The notes under the pieces were generated by a model. The model was not told the DNA's origin, did no database searches, and saw only the letters and a list, made by a program, of their open reading frames with translations. The position numbers and the translations under genes are program-made. From Phialocephala subalpina (lineage: Eukaryota > Ascomycota > Leotiomycetes > Helotiales > Mollisiaceae), in NCBI GenBank assembly GCA_900073065.1, contig FJOG01000026.1, forward strand, positions 18,617 through 82,616: a stretch of DNA of 64,000 nt, read 5' to 3'. Of the stretch, positions 2,557-49,958 are shown one piece after another; positions within the stretch are counted from its first letter, which is position 1; each line of letters begins with the position of its first letter.

Positions 2557-4870
2557 ATGGTTTGGCCGGGTAAAGGAAAGGAGAAGGCCAAGAAGAAGAA
2601 GGACCTGGAGGAGTTGGAAGAAGAAGTGACGAAGTACAAAGGAGCCCTGAAATTTATTCACGATACCATACTATCCGATGCAGTCAGGTCTCGCGAGGAG
2701 TCGTTCAAATTCGACGGCGAGGGTTGGCACCTCAGTGCCTATGATCGCAGTACGGATGGTACAAAAGCGTTGGTTCGGGTGCTTGTTGACCAGCTCGTGA
2801 AGCAAATTGATAGTGCAAATTGGTGGGCGCACGATTACTTTGTACTTGAGAAAGAGCACGACAACTTGGTGTTTCAGACGCAGGGAGGGGACGTGGAAGC
2901 TATCCAAAGGCACCGGACAAAGAGAGCCGGGGCGAAGGAGATCGCGAGAGACAGAATTAAGGACTTAGAGAACCGACTTGGCCAAGCCTACATCGAAATT
3001 GCCAGCTATGAGGCGGAGAAGGACCGACTCCTGACGCGCAATAGTGTGCTACAGGGGGAGCATGATCGCGACATGCAATTATTCGCCGATGACTGCGAGA
3101 AGCGAAGAATTGCAATGCAAAGAAGCCATGACCAGGAAAAACAGGCACTCGAGCCTCGGATCAAGAGAAGAGTTCTGGACGAGTATGCATCTGAGAGGAA
3201 GGCGACAGAGGATAGGCATATCGGTGAAATGAAAAAGCTGAGGACCAAGTACGACATTGAGATGGACAGCCTCAAAGCCGAGTTGGCCATCATTGGTACT
3301 AGACACGAGGGAGAAATTGCCAGGCTCAGGGAGGATCACAAAGGGAAGAAAGCGGAGCTGAAACAACAGCTGGCAAATGAAATATCTCAGCATGAATCGG
3401 AAGTGCGCGATATGGAACAGCAGCATAGCTCTACCATACAACAAATGGATCAAGCGCGTGAGGTTGAGCTCCAACGCAAGCAGCAAGACCACGAAGCCAA
3501 GATCAGGACGATGACGCAGGAACAAGAATCCGCGAGAAGCCAGTGGATTCAGACCGAGTCAAGATTGATACGAGACCACAATTCCCAAATGAAAACATTG
3601 CGGAAAGAGCACGAGGATGCAGTTGATCACATATTAAAGGAGCACAAAGCCGAGTGCCGGACAATGAACGACCAGATTGCCAAGATGAAGAAAGACCACG
3701 CTGCAGAACTGTTACTGCGGAAGAGTGAGTTCGACGAGGAGAAAGTGGAGCTGCTCCAGCAACATGCGGACGAGAAGAAGCAGATAGAAAAGGACCGCGA
3801 TGCGTACAGCGCCGCCTTGCTGGAGCGAGACAAAGCCCGCGACAAGGTAACGGGCGACAAATTCGAGGAACTGAAGGATGTCGAGATCAAAGCCAAATAT
3901 CAGGAGCTGAAAGATGCGGTAGAAAAGCTAGCACGCCTCGACTGGAGGAGCGACCAGGCACAGCCATTGCGGCGTCTCTTTCCTGCGCAAAGTGACACTC
4001 TGATGAGGCAGATTTTGCAGGATAGCATTTGGGTTGTCCTCCATAAACACATATTCTGCAGTCCATTCCGCATCCTAGGGGAGGAAGGCCAGCGGCTCGA
4101 GACGCAGTGGAATAAAGAATACGGAAAGGGTTTGTGCCCTCTTTCAATCACCTTGCCTGCTAAGGACGGGATTTTGGCCGATCACTAGTTTGAGTCTCGA
4201 TTCGCTCTTGTGCTGACATCAGCAGATTCTGCATTCGATAACGGGAGTTACATCTGGCCAAAGCCGGAAGTTGAGACTGAGCGGTGGCGTTATACGTAAG
4301 TCGCCCCTTTTTGTCAAATCTCCCAAATCTTTGACATGGGATGGAATTACTTCTAGACCAGTGCACCGTGCCATCCTCCGCGAGACATGCATCTTCCCCA
4401 TGACCAAAACAACCAAAGTAGTGACTGACTGCGTTACGAGGAGTAGTACGGTCAAGGAATGTCGTTCCGCTTTACGAAAACCAGCGTCTCAGTGGGATCC
4501 CCGAGCAAAACTGAAAAAGGACTTCGCAGATGCGTTAGAGAAACTCAAAACAGAGCTTGCGGAGACATTGAGCGAGGTTACCGACAAGAGTGATAAGCAA
4601 GCTGTCAAGGAAGTGACAATGAAGGCTACGAACATGTGGCTCGAATTTGGGATGCAGCGCTTCCGACTTCTTGTGGTTGTGCAGGATTCCAAGTTCGAAT
4701 CGATTGAGGACAGAGTCCGGAGGTCGCAAGAAGATGTGCTGGAGCTCGTGCTTGTCCCGGGATTGAAGAGTTTCGGGAACTCAAAGGGCCAAGATCTGCA
4801 AGCTGAAGAGACAATTGGGGATTTTAGGGGCGACGTCATCAAGATCAAGGGACCACCGCGGCGTGGGTGA
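2557..4870 (+). CDS. 719-aa coiled-coil protein of unknown function
   Basis: Three exons (2557-4129, 4223-4295, 4357-4870) total 2160 nt. I do not recognise the family. The N-terminus is Lys/Glu-rich (MVWPGKGKEKAKKKKDL), followed by a short globular-looking stretch (about residues 35-100) with several Trp and Phe. Residues 110-450 are an almost unbroken Glu/Lys/Gln/Arg heptad-like region expected to form a long coiled coil. The C-terminal 190 residues look globular. Intron 1 ends in a tandem AGCAG acceptor, so exon 2 may start at 4223 or 4226 without a frame change. Intron 2 has a GTAAGT donor and TTCTAG acceptor. Stopping at the TAG that ends the first exon's open frame would give 543 aa, but the spliced model extends smoothly and I prefer it. 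The role could be scaffolding or cytoskeletal; that is inference from composition alone. Confidence 0.7.
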
Positions 4871-7155
4871 GCCAAGGATCCAAAAGTATACATAAATTGA
4901 TGTTAAACGGATTGTTCCTTGACGATGCAGCCAAATTTGAAAGTATCAGGCGAACTACGTACTAACGCCATTTCAAGTGTCATCAAAGACTGAAGGGATG
5001 GGTTAGAGGGCTATAGATCTGTCAGTCTGGAAAGGCTTCTCAGCATTTAGGTGATCAATACACCAAAGAGATCATGCATCCATTCCTGCTTCGTATCCAC
5101 CCATTACTTGTTCGTCTTTGATCTTTGCGTTCCAAGGCTTTACGTGTGCTTTAGAGTGAGATCTAGGTAGATGACTATCTCTCGCGCAAATTCGGGCGGT
5201 ACCCTTCATTTGACCCACCCTCTCTTGTTGTGCTAGTAAAAGGCGGCACACCAAGTCCTAAACCTCACGGAGTATTGAAAATTGATCATCGGATCGAGTT
5301 TTCTGTCACTGGGCGAAGGGAGCAGATTGAACTCTCGTCTCTTCATTGAACGATTCTCGGGGATCGTCGCAAAGTACGTAAGATTATGAGATATTATATC
5401 GCTCTCATTCCCACTCTCCGAAAAGCGATATGTGGATTTTATTCGACATCGCAAGCCACCTTCGTGTCCACTTGGAAAGTTTAGATTTGAAGTGGAAAGG
5501 TCATCTAGGAGTTTGTGGTGGTACACGCCCACGTCGTGCGAGAACTCGTAGGATAGGAAGCCAAAAACATCAGAAAATCCAGAACAAACCAAAATATGCG
5601 CACGAGAACAGTATTGGAGGTTTATTTACCACCGGTAAGGCTTCGCTGAAAGTCCCCAGCCGACTGCAAAAAGCCCACAATCTGGTATCAAGACCCCGCG
5701 TAGTTCTGTACAGTACACTCCCCTTCGCCAAAGAATGAGTCGATCAAAGAAGAGTACCTAGGATATTGACCAGGAAAGCTGGGGTATCAAGTGCCAGCTT
5801 TCAATGACATCCGAAAAATCGCGAATACAGAAGTTATAGAAGACGGTATAACATCAATTCCTCCACTTCCATGAATTCGAGACGGGCAAACGTGCATATA
5901 ACTTGCAAAGACCTACAATCAAATCCCAATAAAGAACACACAAGGCTGAAGTTGACTCGTGTCGAGCATCATAACCTTACTCGCACGTGCAGCCAACCTC
6001 TCGACTGAGGTGAACTGCGGCAAGGCCCGGGCATCGAGGCAGACCTGAATTAGGGAATTGCCGCTGCAGAGCAGGCTTCAAGCGACCAAATCGAGATCTT
6101 GAAAACTGCGATGTGCAACAAGAAATATGGGGCCGGTGTCAGGATGGATGCATCTTATTTGCATGACGGCTTCCAGGTTGGGAGCCAGCGGGAAGATCGT
6201 GTCGTGTCCTGCGGTGTCCTGACGGGACTGAAGGGTTCGATCACGAGGCTTGACCACAGCCGTCCAAAGTTTGGCCTTTTTGTGAGCGCGCTGTGGTGTG
6301 TGGGTGGCGTGTGGTAGGGTTACTTGTATGTTGTCCCCAAGTACAGTACTGTGCAGTTACAGTAACATCATGAAAGGAGTCGTGTCCGGACCTCGTCTCC
6401 CCCTTTAACCTTAGTCGACTGCAGGCGGGCTCGTCTTCTCTTCTCTTCTCTTCTCCTTCTCGTCTCAGCCTCGCCCAAGTTGATCGGTCGATTCAAATTT
6501 CATTCCTCATCGAACCACACCATGGCCACAATGCGGAGCCAGGGATGGCGTCCTCCCCTTGACTTGGGGTGACAGCAGCATGACATCACCGAACGGCTCT
6601 GGACATTGCTGACATAACCTTAACTCGTCTCTGGGCTGCGGTGGCGGTTTCTCGGAAGGCTCACCTTATTCTCCGATCTCCTCGACCTTCGAGATCTTTC
6701 AAAGCTCACATTGTGTCGTGATACTCATGCTACTGTACTGCAGCCATCGTCGAAGGAAAGGTCGAGCGCTGCTTTTGTGGTGTGAGACGCCGACACATGG
6801 GGGGGATCACGTTACTTCGTATGACGTGAAGCAGCATCGGGGGTCCGTCCGTTCCCAGACTGGCGGCTATGCACACATCGACCAGCGGCGCCAATAGCAC
6901 TCCTTCGATCACCAGGGATCCTTTTTTCCTCAGCCAGGGGTCCCGCGATCGCAAAACATCGTCACTTCAACGTCTCGAGATGGCCAAAATTTGGCTGGAG
7001 GAAGGGCTCGCAGCGCCCACAGTGCCCACTCGACGGTTTAAGGTTAAGGGACCAGTCGGACCCTGCCGAACAGCTGCACCAGTGAGTCCAGGCCTGCCTT
7101 TTTCCCCGCCGTGATGCAATATTTGGAATGCGATCGAGGTCAGATTCAACCTCCA

Positions 7156-7166
7156 GATCCTCGATC
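7156..7166 (+). promoter_or_regulatory. Candidate light-response element upstream of frq
   Basis: GATCCTCGATC fits the paired GATN-type consensus (GATNC...CGATN) reported for White Collar complex sites in Neurospora. More GATC/CGATC words lie nearby (7131, 7163). Such words are common by chance, so this is only a candidate. Confidence 0.2.
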
Positions 7167-7387
7167 GCCAACCAAATCGCGAAGGAAAACGGGGTGCGCA
7201 GAGGTGAGGAAGAGAGAAGGGTCCACGCACACGCCATGGGTCTCCTTCGTCTGTAACTCCTCACTTCTGTTCCTTTCTAACCTTCTTGTCAACTTCAATT
7301 GTCTGTTCTTCAAGCTTTTTTCTATTTGTATGTCCTTCAGTGATTGGACATCAACATCAACATCGTCATCTTGATCGAGATTCAACA

Positions 7388-7506
7388 ATGCCACCCCACG
7401 CCGAATACCCAGCGTATACCCAACTTACTGCCTACTTCTGAAATGAGCAGAAGGAACCTCTAGGACGACGAATGCCATGAGTTCGCCCACAGCAGAATAT
7501 TCTTAA
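7388..7506 (+). promoter_or_regulatory. Cluster of short upstream ORFs in the frq leader
   Basis: Four short ATG-to-stop frames precede the frq start. They lie at 7388-7441 (17 codons), 7443-7463 (6 codons), 7472-7480 (2 codons) and 7477-7506 (9 codons, overlapping the previous one). A fifth at 7330-7374 (14 codons) would count if the transcript starts far enough upstream. Neurospora frq also has upstream ORFs in its leader, so a translational control role is plausible. Whether an intron removes them is not visible. Confidence 0.45.
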
Positions 7507-7525
7507 CAACACCCGGCACGAAAAG

Positions 7526-10500
7526 ATGCTTGCATCTTCGACCAAGCAGCAACAACCGACAGCCACACATCCGCGCCGACTCCCTGCGCACTTGTCGGTC
7601 AGCTTGCGCCATGAGGGCCCTCCGACTGCAAGTCCTGCAGAAATAGGAAATGCAGACACCACAGTTGGAATGGCATCGGGAGCGTCTCCAGCCCGACAAG
7701 AATCCGAGGAGAGCGGCAAGTCAGGCGAATCGAATGTGGAAAAGTGGTTTGATCATTCCAATGGCCGGCCTGAGACGGGGTACAACCCGAACTTCGAAGA
7801 TAGTAAGTTCATGGTCGGCAAAATTATAAAGAGAGGTTGAGTTGCTGACAGTGGCGTGATTGCAGATGAACCGCCTTTCTTCCTCCCCCACAATAGCTCC
7901 AGCACGTCCAACAACGATGTGCCAGCATCGAGATTGACGAGGCAACCTATGCCTGGGATACTGCAGCCAGCTACCAATACTAGCAGCGCAGATGATTTCA
8001 GAAGTGTCATCGATGACCTTACAATTGAGAATAAGAAGTTGAAGGAACGATTGAGGAGATTTGAGAGATTACAGCCTCCTCATTTGGAGAAGGATAAAAT
8101 GTTCGAATTAAAGATTCACAGTTTATCTTCTCGTAAGAGAAGGGAGTTAGAGGATCTATTGAGGGACTTTGCCTCGAGTGCTGAAGAATCACTAGACGGA
8201 GAGACTAAGCGTTCACCGAACGACCGGCCACTCTACCCCTCGCTCAATCTGCATCTTTCCAATTCCACCCTCAACGCAAAACACACACCGTCGTCATCGA
8301 CATCGAACTCTCGTCCAAACGATTCAGCATATGCCTCGATGTCGATTTCGGGACCAACCTCGACATCGGCTCCGAATCAACTTCCTCTGGAGAAAGCAGA
8401 CGGCCGGCAACCACGAGTGGGCAAGGAGCAGAAGATACACTCTTTCTTGCACAACATACCGGAAGGTCTGCTGCCAAAGCATTCTCCTGTCATGACCGAA
8501 CGGCAGAAGAAGAAGCTCGTTGTGCAACGTCTAGAGCAACTGTTTACTGGACGAAGAGGCGCAAAGGCGGACGAGCATAGCCAACCGTTTCAGCAGCAAG
8601 AAGTTTCCAAGTCCGCAGCTAGAGCCGATGACGCTGCAAGAAATGGGCCGCCGGAGGAGGAGGGTGCTCGAGAGGCACATATTCTTCCAATGGATATCGA
8701 TACTGACGGCGGAAAGCTATCGAAGTTGTCAAGGAATTCGAGCGGTTCAACAATAGGGTCGCGAAGAATGATTTCTGATTCTTCTGATGAGCAATCTCCG
8801 GAGCGACTAAGCCCGAAGCAAAGACCCACAAGGCCATTGGACCTGGACCCGGACCGAGCACAGATTCCGTCGGAGAACGTTGCTTACATTCGTCATCTTG
8901 GTCTCTCCACCCCTCAACTTGTTACCGAAGATTCCGCGGATGTAGCTGCTGATGCTGATGGATGGATCTATCTGAACCTGCTTATCAACATGGCTCAGCT
9001 CCATATCATCAATGTTACCCCCGAATTTGTCCGATCAGCACTGTCTGTCGTGAGTGAGAAGTTCCAGCTCTCACGAGATGGGAAGAAGGTGAGATGGCGA
9101 GGAGGTTCGGAAGGAACCCGGTTGAGCAGTGACAGTGGTGCAAGCAGTGTCCGGAATCGGTCTAACGGTGATGAAGATCATGGAAACAGGAAGAGACGCA
9201 AAGTCGAAGTTGGCAGATTCGCATCAGCGCCTGTTGAAGTGGACAATTCTGATATACCCATGAAGAGTTCCAGGTCATCCAGTTCCTTCCATTACAAGCC
9301 CCTTTTTCATCATCAGAATTCGTCATCAGCGGGCGTGATGTCCACGGATGAAAGCGACTCTCCTTTCGGGTCTGGACCAGAACTGGATAGCAGTTCGAGA
9401 AAACTCTCCCGTGGCGCAAACGCGTGGAGTAGGGCGTCTGGCTCCGGTGGGAAGAGGCGGAGACGCCAGGACGAAGGACCAATTGTTTTCTATAACGGCG
9501 CTAAATTCTGCATCGATCTATCTGGAGACCGATCGAACATCATAACCCCTCTCCACATTTCCGATATTGGAAAGGATGGATACAGCAACCAAGCCACCGT
9601 TGCACTCGGTGCTCGTGAGTCAGCTCCTACCTTTGCACGAACCACATCTGGCTCTTTTCTACCATTCCGGCCCTTCAAGGATTATTCGAAGAGTAATGAC
9701 CCCTTTTTGACCGAAGAAACTCGACCAAAAACACCAGAACTTTTCGAGGATGAGTCGGAGGAAGAACAATTTGTCAACGAGACACCCCGTGGATCTAGCC
9801 ATGTTCAATTACAACGTTTCGAAGCTACCGGCCTGGGTGGAATCCAGCCAGCAGACCATTTCGCGGTCCAGGTGCATACTCGGCGCAGAAAGTCAGGTAG
9901 AGTCGAACGCTCGAAGCTCTCCCGATTTTCGAGATTGTCATCCCCGGGTAAGACTCCAAGGAAGTTCCTGCACGGCATCCCCAAGGAGTCCATCGATTAT
10001 TTCCATGACAAATCCCCGGAAGAGACAATCGCAGATCGACTTGCGGCATGGCCTGGGTGTTCATCAACACCTCGCAACACAATTGTGCCTGTCGACAAGC
10101 TCCCAGTTAAGACGGAAATCTTATCAACTAGATATGTCAATCTAGCGCCCTCTCAGCTTCCCCCACCTTTCGGCTGGGACGTGTCTACAAACTCATCTGA
10201 TGGCGATTCTGATAGCGATTCTGATAGCGACCGCTCGTCGGCAGGAATCTCTCATCTTCGCTGCGATAGACCATTCTTAAACGTATCTCGCAATAGAATG
10301 AAAGACCCCAATGATCTCGACCTTGCGGATGCTAGTGACGAGGAGGACGTTTCTGGATCTGATACAGATAGCAACATCGACATGCTCGCACAAGCAAGAC
10401 AACTTGAACCTGATGTGGTCTTGGAACAAGAACGAGAGTTTGCAATGGAGGTTGATGAAGACAGGAGGCGAGCAGGCAGTGCACTGGCGAGGAGCAGTGT

Positions 10501-11315: not shown

Positions 11316-12924
11316 ATGTCGATGTTTAACCTTTTCCTGTTTCCGTCGCTCCCTCTGATCCTAACCATCTTGGCTGTAGTTTACTATATTCTCCCATATT
11401 TCACGACCTTCCGGTCATTGGCAAGCATTCATGGACCGTGGAGTGCCAAATTCTCCAACATTTGGCTTGGATTATCAACAAGAAATGGCAGAAAATTTGC
11501 TGCCGCGATTGGGCGCATAGGAAATATGGGAAGATTTTCCGTGTTGGGTACAATCATGTATCCATTGCAGACGAGAGGGCATTGCAGACAGTGTACGGGC
11601 ATGGAAATTCCTTCCTGAAAGAGTGCATCGTCCTAACTGCTCGGCCAGTTCTCGTAGACTGACAAATTGCAGTACGTTCTATGAAGCCTTCGTAGTAGGC
11701 ACAACAGGAATGTTCAACACCCGCGACAGAATCGACCACACCCGGAAACGAAAACTCATGGCCCACGCCTTCTCCCTAAAATCAGTCGGCAAATTCGAAC
11801 CATACATGAAATCCAGCCTCGAACGCTGGGTCGCCCAACTGGACCGTAAAACTGCATATCCCACTCAAAACGGACTCCACAAGTTTGATGCCATGCCATG
11901 GTTCAGCTTTCTAGCTTTTGATATCATCGGAGATCTTGCTTTTGGGTCACTTTTTGGCATGGTTAAGAAAGGGAGGGATGAGGTTGAGGCTCAACTTACG
12001 CATGGAGGGCCGGTGACTGTTACGCCTGCTGTTGAGGTCTTGAATCGAAGGGGAGAGGTCTCTTCAGCGCTGGGTTTGCGTCCTGCACTGAGGCCGATCG
12101 CGAAATACTTGCCTGATCCTTTCTTCACTAAAGGTGTTGAAGCAGTCGCAGACCTGAACGGTATTGCCGTCAGATCTGTAGTATCTCGGTTGGGGGAATA
12201 TGAAGGAGAGAAAGAAAAGAAGAGCTGGGACTCGGGACGAAAAGACATTCTGGAACGATTGATCCATGGCAAAGATGCGCATGGGAATAAAATGGACAGG
12301 AGAGAGATTACAGCAGAAGCTTTGACTCAACTCATTACGGGCTCGGATACGATTTCCAAAACTTCTTGCGCGGTCTTCTATTGGATTCTCCATGGAGAAA
12401 GAGCGTGGCCTGGGACGGTACTTCCGAAGCTTCGAGCTGAGCTTGATGCAGCAATCCTCCCAGGAGAAGATGTCGCTTCTTATGTCTCGATCAGGAAGCT
12501 GCCGTTCTTGAAATGTTGTATCGATGAGGGAATGAGACTTCATTCTACCTCAGCCATCAGTCTACCGCGCAGAGTAACCAGTGAAGGAGTCGAGTTCGAT
12601 GGGGTTCGTTTCCCGACCGGCACAGTGCTTTCGGTTCGCTCTTACACCATTCATTATCTCGAAGAGATCTGGGGCCCGGATGTGAACGAGTTCAAGCCAG
12701 ATCGTTGGCTTTCTTTGAATACCAGACAGAAGAGGGCATTGAATCCGTTCAGCTATGGACCTCGCGCTTGTGTTGGACAGAATGTTGCGATCATGGAGCT
12801 GCAGATTATCATTGGCACTGAATTCAGAAGATATGACTTTGAGTTGCACCAGCAGGTTTTGGAGTCGCATGAGGGATTCTCGAAATAACCAAAGGAGTGC
12901 TTTGTTGGTGTCAAGAGACGTTGA
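11316..12924 (+). pseudogene. Cytochrome P450 (CYP53-like benzoate 4-monooxygenase), apparently broken
   Basis: The encoded protein resembles fungal benzoate para-hydroxylases, microsomal P450s that start aromatic acid breakdown. Visible are an N-terminal membrane anchor, the FYEAF...GMFNTRDRIDHTRKRK block, the I-helix TGSDTIS, the K-helix EGMR, PDRW, and the haem loop FSYGPRACVGQN with its Cys ligand. An intron at 11623-11672 joins FLK to the TFYEAF block in frame. Two lesions are visible. Near 11505 the frame shifts as if one base were missing, between the GRKFAA and DWAHRKYGK segments. A TAA at 12886-12888 then interrupts the C-terminus 11 codons before the natural-looking TGA at 12922-12924, where the frame continues as PKECFVGVKRR. 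Sequencing error could explain one lesion but less easily both. Confidence 0.8.
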
Positions 12925-22695: not shown

Positions 22696-23571
22696 TTAAA
22701 TGCTCGCACTATTAACTTCCTCCAAGTCGACATAATGGATCTCTCTCCCCTCTTCATTCTCAATAGGCCTCCTCTCCCCCATGTCCTTCCCGTCATACAC
22801 CCTCCACCTCTCCGCAAACTGAAAGACTTTGCTATAGTCCCTGCACATATGCGGTGTCTTAGTATCAAACCCAGCCATTGCTCCTCTCTCGCTCCTAGAA
22901 TGCTGCGTGTACTCGAGATTTGTGTCTGCGTGGCAGAGAAGGGCATTTCTCAGGTATTCGAGACAGTGAGCGACATGCCATGGTGTCTTGCCTGAGTCGG
23001 TGATGTTGGGTGCATCGCTATAGGCGAGGAAGCGGAGATTGTTCTTGGTTTGTTAGACGATTTCATGGGAAAGGAAGAGGTGATTTGCCAGGCAATGTAA
23101 TTGGTGAAAGACTGAGATAGAGAGTATTTCTGGACCAAGACTTGGATGCTGGATAAAGCCCAATCCATCTATCATATCAACCTATGTCAAATTCACCTAG
23201 ACTTAGACCACTTACTAGGTGAAAGGTCTCGCCATGCTTGATCGCTTTGTGGTGATGGAAGTGCCGCAAATGTTTCGTTGGCTTCGAAGAAGAAGGGAGA
23301 ATCGCCTAGAGGTCCTGGCCTTTTCAATAAAAGGAAGGCAAATGAAGGGATATTGTGACTTACGAAGAACTTCAATTTGTTGCGCTAAAGATCTCTTCAA
23401 AAGGAGTAATCCAACTACAGTCACAATTCCACACATATACGCCAACGCCAAAGTGCCCCAGATTACGGATTTGCGTCGTGAAGTTGTAACATCGTGCGTC
23501 AGGATGTCTTTGGGGATAGAAGGTTCCTCGTGGCCATAGTTCTCGTGGAGCTTTGAGTATTGTGCATCCAT
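22696..23571 (-). pseudogene. UstYa-like (DUF3328) oxidase with one internal stop
   Basis: UstYa-family proteins are small membrane-anchored oxidases that close rings in fungal RiPPs such as ustiloxin. Exons 23571-23364, 23305-23216 and 23168-22696 join in frame to 257 codons. The N-terminus is cytosolic, followed by a membrane segment (about residues 38-62: VIWGTLALAYMCGIVTVVGL). Then come DSPFFFEANETF and the family blocks: FHQLHCL, HCLEYLRNALLCHADTNLEY and CRDYSKVFQFAERW. The frame is complete except for a TAA at 23055-23053 (codon 138), between the two His/Cys blocks. I found no intron that removes it. A CAA to TAA change would explain it. The gene is divergent from the repeat precursor 0.7 kb away. 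An ATG two codons upstream (23577) is an alternative start. Confidence 0.75.
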
Positions 23572-23577
23572 TCTCAT

Positions 23578-24292
23578 GCATTCTTGAGACAAGAAAGATC
23601 GAGTACTTTCGAAGTCACAACAAATATCTCGAAGAACATGTCTGACTTAGAATCAGCATTCTGTTGCCAACATCCGAGTAGGGAGATAACGCAGTGTCGG
23701 AGCATCTGTGTAAGCATAAAATATGCCTTCCTATTCCATCCTAGTAACGAGGAATCCAGGCTAGCTTGCCGAACTAGCTCGTACCGAACCCTCCTATGAA
23801 AGTCCAACGATTCAATCCCACATCGTGACATCGTCCCCAGGCTTCTCTACCCTCCCCCTCGTCACTGGTCGGCAGGGTTTCGCTCCTCCTATAATGAAAG
23901 CTAATCTTCGATAACAGTCCTCATTTTCGTCGACACATTTGCGTGCTACCTAGGTACTTTTTAGCTGAAGGAGGAAGGTGCTTAAAATTGCAATGCAAAT
24001 CCCATGTAACTGTGAGTGACAGCCTGCACTGGCGATCTGAAATTCACAGCTAACCGGCTTCAGAGCGTTTGCCAGCTGGCTGCTAAGGTCATGCAGAGTG
24101 CCGCGACTGACATGAACTGCCTAAGTCGGGCAAAGTGCAAAAGATGAGACCGATCCCCGTCGAAGAACGCGGCAGCGGAACCAGCACTGGGTTGATATAA
24201 GAAGGTCGAACATCAAGATACAAAAGAAATTCCCAGACCGCAATCGCCACATTCCGATCTTTCTCTTCACCTCAAACCCATACGTTGACATT
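23578..24292. promoter_or_regulatory. Divergent promoter of the UstYa remnant and the repeat precursor
   Basis: This stretch of about 715 nt has no convincing gene. TATAA at 24196-24200 lies 93 nt before the precursor's ATG and is the best core promoter candidate. Shared control of both flanking genes is an inference from their head-to-head layout. Confidence 0.4.
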
Positions 24293-24681
24293 ATGCGTAC
24301 CTCGTTTATCATCGCCTCAATACTGTCAGTGGGTGCTCTCGCTATACCTGTATCCAAAGCCGGTAGGTACTACAACTCTTCTGGGAAATGGCACTGAAGT
24401 GTTACGCAGGCGTAGACGTTGCTGCCAGAGATGAAGATGCCCTCTTCTGGTACAAGACTGGACGCAGTATTGAAGCAAGGGAAGAGGATACCAGTTTTTG
24501 GGTAAGAACCATATCTTCCGGGATGATTGCCGTTGCTGAATTGGACATTCAGTACAAGGTTGCACGCAGTGTCGGGCTGGTGAAGAAGGATGAAGAAGCC
24601 CTATTCTGGTACAAGACGGGTCGCAGTATTGAGAAGAGGGACGAGGATACCCTCTTTTGGTACAAGACTGGCAAGGACTGA
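24293..24681 (+). CDS. Secreted Kex2-type repeat precursor, candidate RiPP (dikaritin-like)
   Basis: Exons 24293-24362, 24410-24501 and 24553-24681 encode 96 aa. Residues 1-17 form a signal peptide (MRTSFIIASILSVGALA). Four repeats follow, each with a Phe-Trp-Tyr-Lys centre at residues 36, 53, 72 and 89, spaced 17, 19 and 17 apart. The centres read FWYKTG, FWYKVA, FWYKTG and FWYKTG. An acidic DEDAL, EEDTS, DEEAL or DEDTL precedes each, and GRSIE follows two of them. The linkers before repeats 3 and 4 are dibasic (KK, KR), as for Kex2; those before repeats 1 and 2 have a single Arg. This is the design of ustiloxin- and asperipin-type precursors, where UstYa proteins cross-link aromatic core residues. 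Two UstYa genes flank it. A peptide pheromone or other Kex2-processed repeat protein is the main alternative. Intron 2 splits FW|YK of repeat 2 and is 51 nt, so retention keeps the frame. Confidence 0.75.
24425..24678 (+). repeat. Four imperfect tandem repeats encoding the FWYK cores
   Basis: The units begin at about 24427, 24478, 24583 and 24634. Unit 2 is interrupted by an intron (24502-24552). Units 1, 3 and 4 share long identical words around TTCTGGTACAAGAC; unit 2 is the most diverged, in both core and linker. Confidence 0.85.
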
Positions 24682-25062
24682 AAAGAGGGACTATGACAAT
24701 CAATATTGTCTTGGGGGAGACTGCAAGAATTCGACCCTTTTCAACATGAAATTGACGAGAGTGTATTTCTTAGGCCAGCGTAAATTGAATACCTGGGAAA
24801 GCTTTGATGAAATGAACGCAGAATTGCGTGCAGAATTGACCTTGCCAACGAAACCGTGATAACGTGCCCCGATGCCCTCGTTACTTCCTATGCAGAAGGA
24901 TCCTCAGCTAGTTGTTTTGCCCCTTGGCGACCTTCTCGAATAAGCTTTACCCGGTCCACTAGCCTGGACGGGCTTGTGGATATGCATTAGCGGCAGATAA
25001 AGAAGCCATAGCCTTTCCCAATCATAGGTATCTTCCAATTCTATAACCAATTCAATATTGTG
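24682..25062. other. Spacer between repeat precursor and UstYa-like gene
   Basis: This 381-nt stretch should contain the 3' end of the precursor transcript and the promoter of the downstream gene. A short plus-strand open frame continues past the precursor stop but has no repeat features. Confidence 0.45.
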
Positions 25063-25871
25063 ATGATGTGGTTGATTCAAGAGAAGTATTCGCGGCTCCC
25101 TAAAGAAAACCGCGACGAGGAAGTCCTGGACAACGAAATAGCGCGACCCCGCAGATTTAACAAGAGCTGGACCACGATTCATTTGACGCTCATAAGTATT
25201 TACACTACTGTCTTTCTGGTCGTGCTATTCAGAGTCCCACAAGCTGCGTGGTCTCAAAAAAAGTACTGTGGGTACATATCACCCTCAACTCGAATGGAAA
25301 AATCTGATCTAAAGCAGCACCAGCAGAATCCGCGGCTCGATATGAAAGGAAGACCTTCCAGGGAGGTATCAATTACACGAGCAACTATCGCGGATACTCT
25401 CGACCGGAGCTCGAAGAAGCGTGGCATAAAATTATCCAGCACACCAACGTGAGAGTGTCAGCCAATGACCTCCGCAAAATCAATCGGACTTCGATCAGAC
25501 TCCAAGAGGGCTCGGGAGACTACCTAGTCAGTCTCGATGTCTTTCATCAGTTGCACTGCCTGAAGTATGTTCGAGACGTGATTCAATTTGGCACGAATGA
25601 AACAGAAAGGTTACCAGAACATCTGGATCACTGCCTGGACTCGATTCGACAGCTCATAATGTGTAAAGCTGATGTGTCGCTCATGACATTTGACTGGAGA
25701 GAAGGATATCGCAAGCCTTGGCCTAATTTCGAGGTCGCGCACGATTGCAGGAATTTCGAAGAGATTGATGAGTGGGCTTCGAGGCATCATGTCGATATGT
25801 TTGAGGAAGGGATGATTGTACATCCGACACTTGGTATGAAATCGGACCCAAAAGTACTATGGTTGAACTAA
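25063..25871 (+). CDS. UstYa-like (DUF3328) RiPP-modifying oxidase
   Basis: Exons 25063-25267 and 25318-25871 encode 252 aa. Residues 1-38 are polar and cytosolic, and about 40-58 form a membrane anchor (TIHLTLISIYTTVFLVVLF). The lumenal domain opens with the family-typical YSPAESAARYE, formed across the intron, then FQGGINYTSNYRG and RPELEEAW. The two diagnostic metal-ligand motifs are present: HQLHC at residues 145-149 and DHCLD with His173, Cys174 and Asp176. The ending is short. The family converts Tyr, Trp or Phe side chains into macrocycle links in dikaritins and cyclochlorotine-type products. Its neighbour is the FWYK repeat precursor on the same strand, 381 nt upstream, which is therefore the probable substrate. 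The start is the first ATG of an ATGATG pair. Confidence 0.88.
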
Positions 25872-45615: not shown

Positions 45616-48468
45616 CTAACTTCCTCTCCATTGCCCAGGAACAGGAGGCGGAGGACCATAATTTGGCTCGCCCGACGCCCCAGCATTCGGATTCCCCCAC
45701 TGCCACCCTTGATTCACACCTTGCTGCGGAGCAGGTTGATACTGCTGTCCTCCTTGAGCATTCCCATAAATCGGAACAGCGGGCGCGAGAGGAGTAGGTT
45801 GATATCCTTGAGTCTGAGGGTTAGGAGTTGAAGCTCGGTGAGGAGGCGGAGGAGGAAAGTACGATTGTTGAGGTTGAGGCGTCATGGGAGAGGGGGTGTA
45901 GGACATTGGCATTGGACCGTATGAGGCGTGGCGTGCGTGCTGGTATTGTGCTTGTGGTGGTCCGGTAGCTTGAGGACTAAGTGTTGCGAATGAGGGTGTT
46001 GGTGGTGAGACGACATGTTGGTTATGGTTTAGATTTAGTGAGGCTACGGTAGAGATAGAGAATGCGGAGGAGTGCCGGCTGGGAGGATTGGAGTAGTACC
46101 CGCTGTCTTGGTGCTGTAGTGGATGAGGTGGTTTCGGAGGAAGAGCGAAGGCTTGCTGTTGTTGAACTGGAGTGGAAGAGGCTTGCTGAGCAGGTTGGTA
46201 AGTCTGGTAGCCAGCCGTCGCTTGTGGTGGAGACGGAGTTGGGGTGTACGAAATTGGTACTCCTTGACCTTGAGGAGCCATATGTTGTTGTGGACTCATA
46301 GGGATGGATTGTGCACGTTGATTAGGATTGTATGTCTGGTATTGTGTAGCGGGTTGCCGAGGAGGCGGCGTTGGTGTATGAGGTACTGGTACTCCCTGGT
46401 TGTGGATTGGCGCCTGCTGGTGCTGAGCTGTAGGGACGGAGTTTGCTTGAGTAGAAGTATATTGGGTCTGAGTGATATCGGCTTCTTGCGACTGGGCCGT
46501 ATCTCTATTATAAGAAATCGAGATGCCGCCAGTGATGGAAAATCCTGTCTTCACAGGCTCTTGAGTGATCGCTGGTGGATAGGAAGTTTGGGAAGTCTGA
46601 GCAGTTTGGACATTATAAGCAGCCTGTGCGTTCTGAATAGCCTGAGCATTCTGAGCAGGTTGAGGCGGCGGAGGCTGATATTGCTGCTCTTGTGGCCTTG
46701 GTGTCGGTGTCGAAAACGTAGGATATGGTAGCGTGTTTTGAGGTGTTGGAAGCTGTGGAGGCTTCGCGACTTTGAGTGGCGCAGGTTGCTGTATATCCAC
46801 GAACGGATTCAACTTGGGACTGGACGAAGCAGGAGCACTAGCTGCCTCGGTAACCTCAGCTGTCTCAACCTTTGCCTCCTGCTGCTTTCGAGGAGGCTCA
46901 GGTGCATAAGTCTCAGTGGGAAATATCTCTGGAATCTCGGGCGGTCTTGGCTTCTCGTCTTCGTCCTTATCCTCATCCTTGACAGTAACAATCTCGATAT
47001 GTTCGCCCCGTTTCTCAAGTTCCATCTGCAAGATCTTCATTCTCAATAATGCGAGCTCTTCCTCCATAGATAACATTGAGTCATTTCGGGTTGGAGTGGT
47101 TCGTCCTGTCGAGGTTGACATCTCGTAGATAGGGCTACAACAAGAGTTAGCATGCTGAGTGCTAGAAGGGTACTGACGCTGAATGGATACTTACGACTGA
47201 GGCGTAGTCATGGGCGGAGGACCACTGGGTGGGTCTGGCTTCTGTGCCGGCGCTTGAGTGATCAACGGTGGAGGACCTGCCGGCAAGCTTGGCCGGTGGA
47301 TAGGTACATGAGGAGGTGGAGTTGGTGTAGGCAAACTCGATCGATGCTGAGGAGGTGGTGGTACATGCTGTGCGATTGTCGTTTGGGGGGAAGAGTATGC
47401 AGGCGCCGGTGTTGGACAAGGAGATGGATGATACGAGATCGGTGGTTTCTCAGGTGCGTAGTTTGCATTTCCAGTCGGCTGGACAGGGACATGCTGTGGT
47501 TGTTGTTGTGAGCTCTGCTGTTGAACTGGTGGCTTCTCAGGTGGGTAACCTGAAGAATTTACAGGTTGTTGAACTGTAGAGATCGCAGGCTGCTGTTGAT
47601 ATGTAGTCGTCTGCTGAGCTGACGCAAAGTTTTGCTGCTGGGATGTGGATTGGAAAGTGTTGATCTGCAACGCTGCTCCAGCGTAGAATGTGGTTTGTTG
47701 CTGGGTCTGCTGTTGAGCTGTTGACTGCTGCGGTTTCGTATCATACGCAACTGGAATAGGAACATGCTCGTACTTCTGATCTTGTGGAGGGGCAGGCCAG
47801 CCTTGCGGTTGATATGGCGGGGGCCCTGGAAGATTGGTCCCGTTTGGTGACATTGGACTCGCAGGTTGAGGTCCACCACCTTGGACAGATCCAGGAATCT
47901 GAAGTCCAGGTTGATACCCAGACAAGGGAGGTTTGATCCCCTGCGCCGCCGCCTGTTCTTGGGCATATTGGATCTTGAAGTTCTCGTACTGTGCCTGTAG
48001 CTTCGTATTGGCTTTGTTGTGGTGGTGTTTGCCATGTTGATGCTCAAGTAAGGTTCCACCAGCATCCAGGGCTACGTGGGCAGCAGCGTACTCAACACCA
48101 TGTTCAACAACTTGGCCCGCTGCCGCATTTGCAACTGGACCAGCCAGTCCCAAAGTTGCACCACTAATGACTCCCGTAATCGCCATTGGCGCGATGACAT
48201 CTCTTTTGCGAGTATTGTGAGTCGTTCCTCGTGCTTTCAGTCCCGCCTCGATAATCTCTCTCTTCTTTCGAGCATTGTGTATCTTGGGCGCCGAAAATCC
48301 CAATCCCATGAGCGAGACACCGCCTGTAACCGGAGCAAATAAAACCGAAGTAGCTGTGCCTGTCGCTCCTCCAGAAATTTGACGTGTATAGTTCTCCCAT
48401 TCCTTGTGAAGCTGCTCTGTGGTCATGCCATCACATTTCGACTGATAATCTTTGAAATCGAAAGGCAT
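45616..48468 (-). CDS. 930-aa protein with Gly/Ala-rich head and long Pro/Gln-rich tail
   Basis: Two exons, 48468-47195 and 47134-45616, join across a clear intron (GTAAGT donor, GCTAAC branch site, TTGTAG acceptor), so what looks like two adjacent genes is one. Residues 1-150 are ordered: MPFDFKDYQSKCDGMTTEQL, then two hydrophobic Gly/Ala-rich segments (about 33-60 and 93-120) around KIHNARKKREIIEAG, and a His-rich patch (HQHGKHHHNK). The remainder is very low in complexity, with many PPxY-like and QQ-rich stretches. A short Glu/Lys/Leu helix (about 442-465, SMEEELALLRMKILQMELEK) follows the intron. Similar heads occur in other uncharacterised ascomycete proteins. Function is unknown; a membrane-associated or condensate-forming protein is a guess. 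Confidence 0.75.
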
Positions 48469-49958
48469 TGTGAACGAATTCTTGCATCAACTTGATGTCG
48501 GCGAAGATGTGATCGAAGTCGCGATATTGGGACTGTGCAGGGAAACGATGGAAAGTTGAGGGGTACTATGAAATAAAAGGAGGCGAACCCATTGTCTTAA
48601 GAGCCGCCCACCCATGACTCCACGAGGCTCTGCTAGACCTGATTGTCTCCCGAAGCAGTACATCTTGGCAACCCAAATATGCCTCGCCTGGTCTCAATTT
48701 AGACATCGTGGCACGAAGGCTTGATATTGTGTTTCCCTTCCCGTCTTTGTGGCCAATTGAACTAGACGCTCGAGCTGGGGCTGAAGAATCCTGCATGAAG
48801 GCAACTCCAACAGCGGGACGCTGTACTGGGATTGAAGTATCAAAATTATCGACAGATAAGAATGAAGCTTGGTCCAAGCACACTCTACTAGAGCGCATTT
48901 GTCTAAAGTTTTTCAAGTATGACAGAAATGCGAAGAGCTTGTCGTTGTAAGCAAAGTCCTTGTTACCGAGGGGTTCAGCTGGGTGAGCTAGTGTCAGTGC
49001 CAAGCCTATCACCGTGTCGGTGAAGCTTCTTCTGTGCTCACCAATTAGTTTGAACAGATCATGCAGGATCCTCAAAACGCAATTGAAGGTTAGAGGAGTC
49101 TCAAAGCTTGTCTCCGCCTCGGCCAGCACAGATGCAGCACACGTGTATCGTCACTGAAAGCGCTCAAATTGAAACAATTTGACAATGTACGGACCATAAA
49201 ATACATAACATGTTGTTGATGATGTCGGTTCTCGCTGAGAAATCTGTTGGCTTTACTAGATATATTTAATATTATATAGGATTTGCGTGGTAATATTAAG
49301 CAAACGAGAAACAAGAGCGATGGCTTTCAATACAGCCAACGGACCGTGGATTTATGCGATAATTACAGTGGTGATTACTAGACGCTATCTGCCTACTCCA
49401 TGCAAGGACTTGAATCATCAAGTGACCGAAATATTTAGATCAGACAATGGACACATGGGACGAAACACCGAGAGCAAAGTCAAACAAGTAGCAAGACGGA
49501 GATGTGCGCGCTTGAGGCCGGAAGAAACAGCGCATATAAGTAGCACTGGTCTGGTTAAAAGCGTGAGCTCCTATTCTTCGGACTGAATGAGAGCCAAATA
49601 CCATGGAGGTGGTGAAAGAGCCCAATTTATAATCCGGTGGTGAGTGAACATGCGATGGCTGAACGAGGAAGATGAGAATATACTTTCCATGCACCTATTG
49701 TCCAGCTTACCTCTGCTCGACCATGTTTGGATGAGTCCAAAGGTATATGAGTCCCATTATGGAACAACAAGGTTTCTCGGCAATTGGAGTGGAAATTCTT
49801 GTTGGGGTTTTGCGTCGTAATAGAACCCAAGGTCTATTTTGACATCCTCTGCATCCAGTACGCCTGCCTATGCCCTCATTCCGGAACGCCGTGAACGTCG
49901 CAAGCTGTGTGCTATCACGAACGCCGTATGCAAGAGCATTGCAGCTCCGTTCGATGTC
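48469..49958. other. Intergenic region with one doubtful open frame
   Basis: A minus-strand frame of 187 codons (48566-49129) has fairly even composition, including RRSFTDTVIGLALTLAH, but no family I know, and it sits close upstream of the previous gene. It may be a relic. The rest of the region shows nothing recognisable. Confidence 0.3.

What the first reader, a model, noticed from the sequence alone, without database searches (positions are those of the whole stretch)
22696..25871. Candidate new fungal RiPP locus: FWYK repeat precursor between two UstYa-type genes
A 96-aa secreted precursor has four repeats centred on FWYK(TG/VA), each preceded by an acidic stretch and partly dibasic linkers. 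It sits between a UstYa-like gene with one internal stop (head-to-head) and an intact UstYa-like gene (same strand). Known dikaritin clusters (ustiloxin, phomopsin, asperipin) have this layout, and UstYa proteins cross-link aromatic residues. Adjacent Phe-Trp-Tyr in the core would be unusual chemistry; I do not recall a described product with it.
Basis: partly seen in the sequence, partly recalled or inferred. Interest (0 to 1): 0.92.

Follow-up and report, generated by a model that had tools for sequence, protein, structure and literature searches.

The report
Fungal UstYa RiPP locus, FWYK core
A root-dwelling fungus carries a small gene for a repeated peptide next to genes of the enzyme family that ties such peptides into rings; it is very probably an undescribed member of a known class of fungal ring peptides, with a new core sequence, but no product has been seen.

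Summary
The window is Phialocephala subalpina (inferred from the deposited protein PAC_14093). A three-exon gene (24293-24681) encodes a 96-aa secreted-looking protein with four FWYK repeats. It lies 381 bp from an intact UstYa/DUF3328 gene (PF11807, 168.6 bits) and 715 bp from a divergent UstYa-like gene with one in-frame stop. The intact enzyme has both HxxHC copper motifs, on two adjacent predicted helices. No named relative of the precursor other than PAC_14093 was found, but the genome holds sibling loci: 7 of 33 UstYa loci (flanks partly read) carry short-unit repeat arrays. Four share a Tyr-Lys core (LFWYKTG, TLYKTN, MSFYKE, GFAYK; 18 of 20 units), and the intact UstYa's nearest own-genome relative sits beside one of them. 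I call it an ustiloxin-type (dikaritin-like) RiPP locus: a new member of a known kind. The precursor has two dibasic sites and fails the published KEP rule. Expression, processing and product are untested.

The parts
24293..24681 (+). RiPP-type precursor gene, 96 aa, exons 24293-24362, 24410-24501, 24553-24681 (stop included); signal-peptide-like start, then four FWYK units
   Evidence: identical, apart from a retained intron, to PAC_14093 of Phialocephala subalpina
24363..24409 (+). intron 1 (47 nt), phase 1, just after the signal-peptide-like start
   Evidence: the C112 precursor has a phase-1 intron at the same place (my reading)
24502..24552 (+). intron 2 (51 nt, in frame) splitting the second FW|YK core
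   Evidence: retained in the public model
24445..24456 (+). FWYK core 1 (FWYKTG)
24496..24558 (+). FWYK core 2 (FWYKVA), interrupted by intron 2
24604..24615 (+). FWYK core 3 (FWYKTG)
24655..24666 (+). FWYK core 4 (FWYKTGKD, C-terminal)
25063..25871 (+). intact UstYa/DUF3328 gene, exons 25063-25267 and 25315-25871; N-terminal membrane-span-like stretch; HQLHC and HLDHC motifs
   Evidence: (PF11807, 168.6 bits)
22696..23577 (-). divergent UstYa-like gene, exons 23577-23364, 23314-23216, 23168-22696, with one in-frame stop at 23055-23053; HQLHC before the stop, HVAHC after it

Best explanation
A small ustiloxin-type RiPP locus of the root endophyte Phialocephala subalpina. The precursor enters the secretory pathway by its signal peptide. 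It is cut at basic sites into acidic-leader/core peptides. The copper-type UstYa oxidase encoded at 25063-25871, anchored in the membrane with its HxxHC/HxxHC domain in the lumen, oxidises the FWYK(TG) core, most likely at the conserved Tyr, probably forming a side-chain cross-link. Shown by sequence: gene structures, repeats, signal-like start, domain, motifs, juxtaposition, sibling loci. Inferred from known relatives: processing by a Kex2-like protease, copper chemistry, cross-linking at Tyr. Not shown: expression, product, function, and whether the left gene still contributes (its open frame stops before the second HxxHC motif, so I take it to be inactive in this strain).
For: Precursor structure and repeats beyond chance. 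Among the four units FWYK itself has 0 nonsynonymous and at most 1 synonymous codon change per pair, while the whole units differ by 1 to 8 amino acids. UstYa 381 bp downstream, PF11807 168.6 bits. Each HxxHC motif lies on its own helix (77-95, 101-119) in a model of mean pLDDT 81.4, as described for CctR (PMC12435403, passages). The H, H and C of both motifs are invariant in the 16 aligned sequences, this one included. 7 of 33 UstYa loci in this genome hold short-unit repeat precursors, against none in 55 kb of the window away from the locus (one three-copy 5-mer that I judge spurious). The C112 precursor aligns with this one (33 of 98 identical; 0 of 2000 unit-permuted controls reach the score) and shares its phase-1 intron after the signal-like start. 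The nearest own-genome UstYa (C34, 53% over 70 residues) sits beside a Tyr-Lys precursor; on a tree the two group with four outside proteins (support 90/83, not among the tool's well-supported forks).
Against: Only two dibasic sites, so the published KEP rule, as I apply it, is not met. The left UstYa is interrupted, and the C34 sibling's UstYa looks broken too, so the family may be decaying. No transporter, reductase, peptidase, tyrosinase or methyltransferase domain in any of the 45 window frames of 150 aa or more (one of them inside the spliced UstYa) or in one of 108 aa; smaller exons were not scanned. No expression data were read. No relative of the precursor in a named other species was found, so conservation across species is untested. 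The window precursor's own genome search found C71, not C34, C99 or C112. The links to C34 and C99 rest on motif (C34 also on its UstYa); their alignment scores are reached by 82 and 272 of 2000 controls. C71 and C20, without Tyr-Lys, do better than those (0 and 3 of 2000), so Tyr-Lys is not the only trait by which the precursors might be grouped.
Confidence: 0.78

Rival explanations
1. A linear secreted repeat peptide (pheromone, signal or repellent type) that happens to sit between UstYa genes and is not modified by them.
For: Most KEPs have no DUF3328 gene nearby (22% of 7878 have one). Repeated cores would also suit a linear signal peptide.
Against: UstYa genes on both sides at 381 and 715 bp. 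Same pairing at six other UstYa loci of the genome. No Cys in the precursor; the alpha-pheromone pattern had 0 hits in the genome, so the pheromone gene itself was not located as a positive control.
Confidence: 0.12
2. A decaying remnant of a RiPP cluster: the precursor and one UstYa still have open frames, but the pathway is no longer functional in this strain.
For: Stop in the left UstYa; two of four unit boundaries lack a dibasic site and the second unit has drifted; the C34 sibling's UstYa looks broken by an insert and frame breaks.
Against: Right UstYa intact with all motif residues. FWYK kept in all four units with only synonymous change. Asperipin-2a needs a single UstYa-type enzyme (PMC6514808, passages). 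C99 has similarly irregular boundaries, so they may be normal for this family.
Confidence: 0.3
3. The right UstYa belongs to an unrelated pathway (hydroxylase or halogenase of a non-ribosomal product), and the neighbouring repeat gene is coincidence.
For: DUF3328 enzymes also act in non-ribosomal pathways, as CctR does. A P450 frame lies at 11521-12888.
Against: No synthetase domain among the 46 window frames scanned. The closest own-genome UstYa also neighbours a repeat precursor.
Confidence: 0.05

Closest known systems
Asperipin-2a (Aspergillus flavus)
   Same: Small cluster with one UstYa-type enzyme; core with three adjacent aromatic residues, FYYTGY against FWYKTG
   Different: Core here has one Tyr, not three, so at most one Tyr ether per core; Trp in the middle; no reductase or transporter domain in the window frames scanned
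Epichloecyclins (GigA, Epichloe endophytes)
   Same: Endophyte; precursor with signal sequence and four repeats; Tyr and Lys in the core (passages)
   Different: Described as nonapeptides with an N-terminal Ile, which the core here lacks; GigA is said to carry KR sites, while only one boundary here is KR. GigA itself was not compared.
Ustiloxins and phomopsins (dikaritins)
   Same: Secreted repeat precursor plus UstYa-type enzymes; ustiloxin uses two such enzymes, as the two genes here may once have done
   Different: No tyrosinase, methyltransferase or peptidase domain found in the frames scanned; no N-terminal Tyr to internal Ile layout as described
Kex2-processed repeat proteins (KEPs, Umemura 2020)
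   Same: Signal-like start and repeated units bounded by basic residues
   Different: Two dibasic sites only, so it fails the survey's rule of at least three repeats between KR/KK/RK/RR

Membership tests
Dikaritin / ustiloxin-type RiPP cluster | UstYa/DUF3328 gene as class-defining enzyme | tested here: met
   PF11807, 168.6 bits against a cut-off of 25; definition from PMC12048977 passages
Dikaritin / ustiloxin-type RiPP cluster | Two HxxHC motifs in the enzyme | tested here: met
   HQLHC and HLDHC, H, H and C invariant in the 16 aligned sequences; on two adjacent predicted helices
Dikaritin / ustiloxin-type RiPP cluster | Precursor with signal peptide and repeated cores | tested here: met
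   Hydrophobic N-terminus (no signal-peptide predictor was run); four FWYK units
Dikaritin / ustiloxin-type RiPP cluster | Kex2 sites between repeats | tested here: inconclusive
   KK and KR at two boundaries, single Arg at two
Dikaritin / ustiloxin-type RiPP cluster | Tyrosinase, methyltransferase, transporter or peptidase in the cluster | tested here: not met
   None in 46 window frames scanned. Not all are required: PMC12048977 says functional clusters lacking one or more were reported (passages)
Dikaritin / ustiloxin-type RiPP cluster | Product with a Tyr side-chain ether cross-link | not testable with these tools
   No mass spectrometry data
KEP in the sense of Umemura 2020 | At least three repeats of 8 aa or more between KR/KK/RK/RR | tested here: not met
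   Only two dibasic sites; rule read in section 13
Asperipin-type | Reductase and transporter beside precursor and single UstYa | tested here: not met
   No such domain in 46 window frames scanned
Epichloecyclin | Lysine methylation and Tyr cross-linked ring of the GigA core | not testable with these tools
   No product data; GigA sequence not compared
Ascomycete alpha-pheromone precursor | Repeats with the W-C..P-G-Q-x-C motif (motif recalled) | tested here: not met
   No Cys in the precursor; 0 genome hits for the pattern, so no positive control

The most novel reading that the evidence does not exclude
P. subalpina runs a lineage-specific family of UstYa RiPPs built on a Tyr-Lys core in which the residues before Tyr vary (W, L, F, A just before it). 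The window member makes a Phe-Trp-Tyr macrocycle, for example a 14-membered Tyr-O-Phe-C-beta ring (ring size by my atom count) enclosing Trp, or a Trp-involving cross-link not known to me for UstYa enzymes, from a precursor cut at single-Arg sites that rule-based surveys miss.
Probability: 0.2. Interest if true: 0.62.

Novelty: new member of a known kind. Interest (0 to 1): 0.42.

Why it matters
It adds an undescribed core to the ustiloxin-type RiPPs and a set of sibling loci in one genome, which lets enzyme and core be compared. It also shows a blind spot: with two dibasic sites and a retained intron in the public model, this precursor fails the rule used by the large KEP survey. A 2019 review calls epichloecyclins the first RiPPs found in a mutualistic symbiotic fungus (PMC6514808, passages), so RiPPs of a very common forest-root endophyte would be of ecological interest.

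Tried and rejected
Literature for the core: FWYK/FWYKT/FWYKTG inside words gave 46 papers, 30 listed, none of the 30 titles on fungal peptides; 16 were not listed. Phialocephala subalpina with RiPP: 2 papers, neither on this topic by title and start of abstract; Phialocephala with DUF3328: 2 papers, one of them the KEP survey; dark septate with cyclic peptide and ribosomally synthesized: 2 papers. The genome paper PMC5148876 has 0 occurrences of words beginning RiPP, DUF3328 or ustiloxin in its main text. Supplements could not be read, so I cannot say whether any survey table lists PAC_14093.

Homologues of the precursor: 2 hits at E up to 0.01 among 36 candidates: PAC_14093 and a 54-aa fragment from a 787-base unnamed contig. 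With a tandem-lengthened query, 1 hit (PAC_14093) at E up to 10 among 1792 candidates.

Ring prediction: a Tyr-O-C-beta link to the residue two before Tyr (14 atoms by my count) would fall on Phe here and at C99, but on Thr at C112 and Ser at C34. So that ring is not an obvious common feature of the siblings, and I keep it only as an example in the novel case.

Splicing out the left gene's stop: a 41-nt GT..AG stretch spans it, but 41 is not a multiple of three and its only branch-like motif is at the donor (my reading); rejected.

Solved structures: none by sequence, none by Foldseek at E up to 0.001. The reversed-sequence control was uninformative, since reversing keeps tandem repeats. Control regions elsewhere in the genome were not obtained, so the only negative control is 55 kb of the window. 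Coverage: the flanks of the 33 UstYa loci were read only in part, 23 to 100% of plus/minus 5 kb, so 7 of 33 is a lower bound; the C112 array was found by a later search, not by the scan. The C63 long-unit protein was left out of the 7; ankyrin-type repeats (L049) and a non-coding-looking duplication (L018) flagged by the scan were dropped as not precursor-like.
Full report
What is there. The window is G000:C36:18617-82616 of a 68.1 Mb assembly. The precursor read without splicing intron 2 is letter for letter the deposited protein PAC_14093 of Phialocephala subalpina, so I take the window to be that species, a dark septate root endophyte (listing). The precursor gene has three exons (24293-24362, 24410-24501, 24553-24681) and encodes 96 aa. 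After a hydrophobic start come four units: DEDALFWYKTGRSIEAR, EEDTSFWYKVARSVGLVKK, DEEALFWYKTGRSIEKR and DEDTLFWYKTGKD. None of 20000 shuffles had any 4-mer four times. Intron 2 is 51 nt and in frame, which would explain the 113-aa public model; splicing restores the second FWYK. Within FWYK the codon differences between units are synonymous only (0 or 1 per pair), whereas the 14-15-codon units compared show 1 to 8 amino-acid changes.

Neighbours. The gene at 25063-25871 is an intact UstYa (PF11807, 168.6 bits). It has a membrane-span-like stretch and two HxxHC motifs, whose H, H and C are invariant in the 16 aligned sequences. The model of its second exon (mean pLDDT 81.4) puts each motif on its own helix, 77-95 and 101-119. 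That is the arrangement described for CctR, whose motif pair binds copper, two ions per monomer (PMC12435403, passages). No solved relative was found. The left gene (23577-22696, minus strand) has three exons with GT..AG introns and one in-frame stop at 23055-23053. Its first HxxHC motif lies before the stop and its second after. The piece after the stop scores 53.7 bits to PF11807; the piece before it scores 14.7 bits, under the cut-off. On a tree of 52 rows and 69 columns the two genes fall in different groups, so they are probably not recent duplicates; many forks of that tree are unresolved. Pfam was run on all 45 window frames of 150 aa or more (25308-25871 as part of the spliced UstYa) and one of 108 aa. 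It gave FRQ, a P450, a CoA transferase, 2EXR, MAM33, XPG, an Ariadne-type RING, an O-fucosyltransferase, a tyrosine phosphatase, an alpha/beta hydrolase, SMC and ELYS, but no synthetase, tyrosinase, methyltransferase, peptidase or transporter family.

Siblings in the same genome. PF11807 gives 56 matches in 33 loci when matches within 15 kb are joined. Short-unit repeat precursors lie at 7 of the 33: the window (FWYK); C34 (GMSFYKEKR); C99 (GFAYK); C112 (ATLYKTNKR); C71 (GEDLKGMF); C20 (EEAINWIKRSP) and C43 (YASYDKKKR), both. An eighth, C63, has long units with EKR and is left aside. Flanks were only partly read, so 7 is a lower bound. In 55 kb of the window away from the locus the same scan gave one three-copy 5-mer, which I judge spurious. 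Four precursors share Tyr-Lys in the core: 4 of 4 units in the window, 7 of 7 at C112, 4 of 5 at C34 (one reads His-Lys) and 3 of 4 at C99 (the last ends at Tyr), 18 of 20 in all. Kinship with C112 is supported by an alignment of 33 identities in 98, not reached by any of 2000 unit-permuted controls, and by a phase-1 intron directly after the signal-like start in both (my reading). C71 also exceeds all 2000 controls and C20 all but 3, though neither has Tyr-Lys. C34 and C99 do not stand out (82 and 272 of 2000 reach the score), nor does C43 (1295). The window precursor's own genome search returned only itself and C71 at E up to 10.

Enzyme and precursor together. The own-genome UstYa most like the right gene is at C34 (53% over 70 residues), beside the MSFYK precursor. 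On the tree the two group with P0003 (Usnea florida), P0004, P0005 (Hyaloscypha hepaticicola) and P0006 at 90/83, below the tool's mark for good support. The C112 enzymes (44 and 42% in the C-terminal block) fall in a separate group. The C34 enzyme gene itself looks broken by an insert and frame breaks.

How it most likely works. By analogy with ustiloxin and asperipin-2a (PMC6514808, passages; PMC7329392 sections 7 and 13): secretion, cleavage at basic residues, and oxidation of the core by the UstYa enzyme. The conserved Tyr is the natural site. Lys may belong to the product or to a basic processing site, since the Tyr-Lys of most units is followed after one or two residues by another basic residue (YKTGR, YKVAR, YKTGK, YKEKR, YKTNK, YKTR); the last units at C34, C112 and C99 end without one. 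Expression, cleavage, cross-link and function are not shown.

Known or new. The type is known: 22% of 7878 KEPs have a DUF3328 neighbour, and the repeated sequences are highly diverse. This precursor has two dibasic sites and so fails that survey's rule, and the genome paper has none of the words RiPP, DUF3328 or ustiloxin in its main text. I found no described product with this core (limits stated in Tried and rejected). I file it as a new member of a known kind. The new elements are the core, the Tyr-Lys sibling set, and the irregular processing sites.

Noticed in passing
L040 (G000:C71:312000-321900), 4775-5974 minus: A large repeat precursor: 17 copies of GEDLKGMF in 17-aa units with EKR, ARR or EAR ends, near a UstYa match, a zinc dehydrogenase and an MFS-type frame.
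   Followed up: partly
L024 (C20) about 130-351 minus; L015 (C43) about 3039-3422 plus: Two further short-unit precursors next to UstYa genes: EEAINWIKRSP (11 aa) and ADLSALVDDELYASYDKKKR (20 aa).
   Followed up: partly
L044 (C63:853600-863500), about 6800-7700 plus: Gly/Ser-rich repeat protein with three long units each starting EKRQL, in the same 10 kb as UstYa matches.
   Followed up: no
L041 about 4680-4850 and L043 about 5130 on: A similar sequence (reading QLLVTCSGSNSHSI) lies in or beside two UstYa loci, C34 and C51; perhaps a small mobile element.
   Followed up: no
window 45616-48486 minus: Two Pro/Gln-rich reading frames of 524 and 431 aa in the same frame, separated by a single stop, no Pfam match, with strong GC skew.
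   Followed up: no
P0002 (54 aa, unnamed 787-base contig): A near-identical precursor fragment with one Ser-to-Asn change (DTNFW), so a variant of the gene occurs in another record.
   Followed up: no
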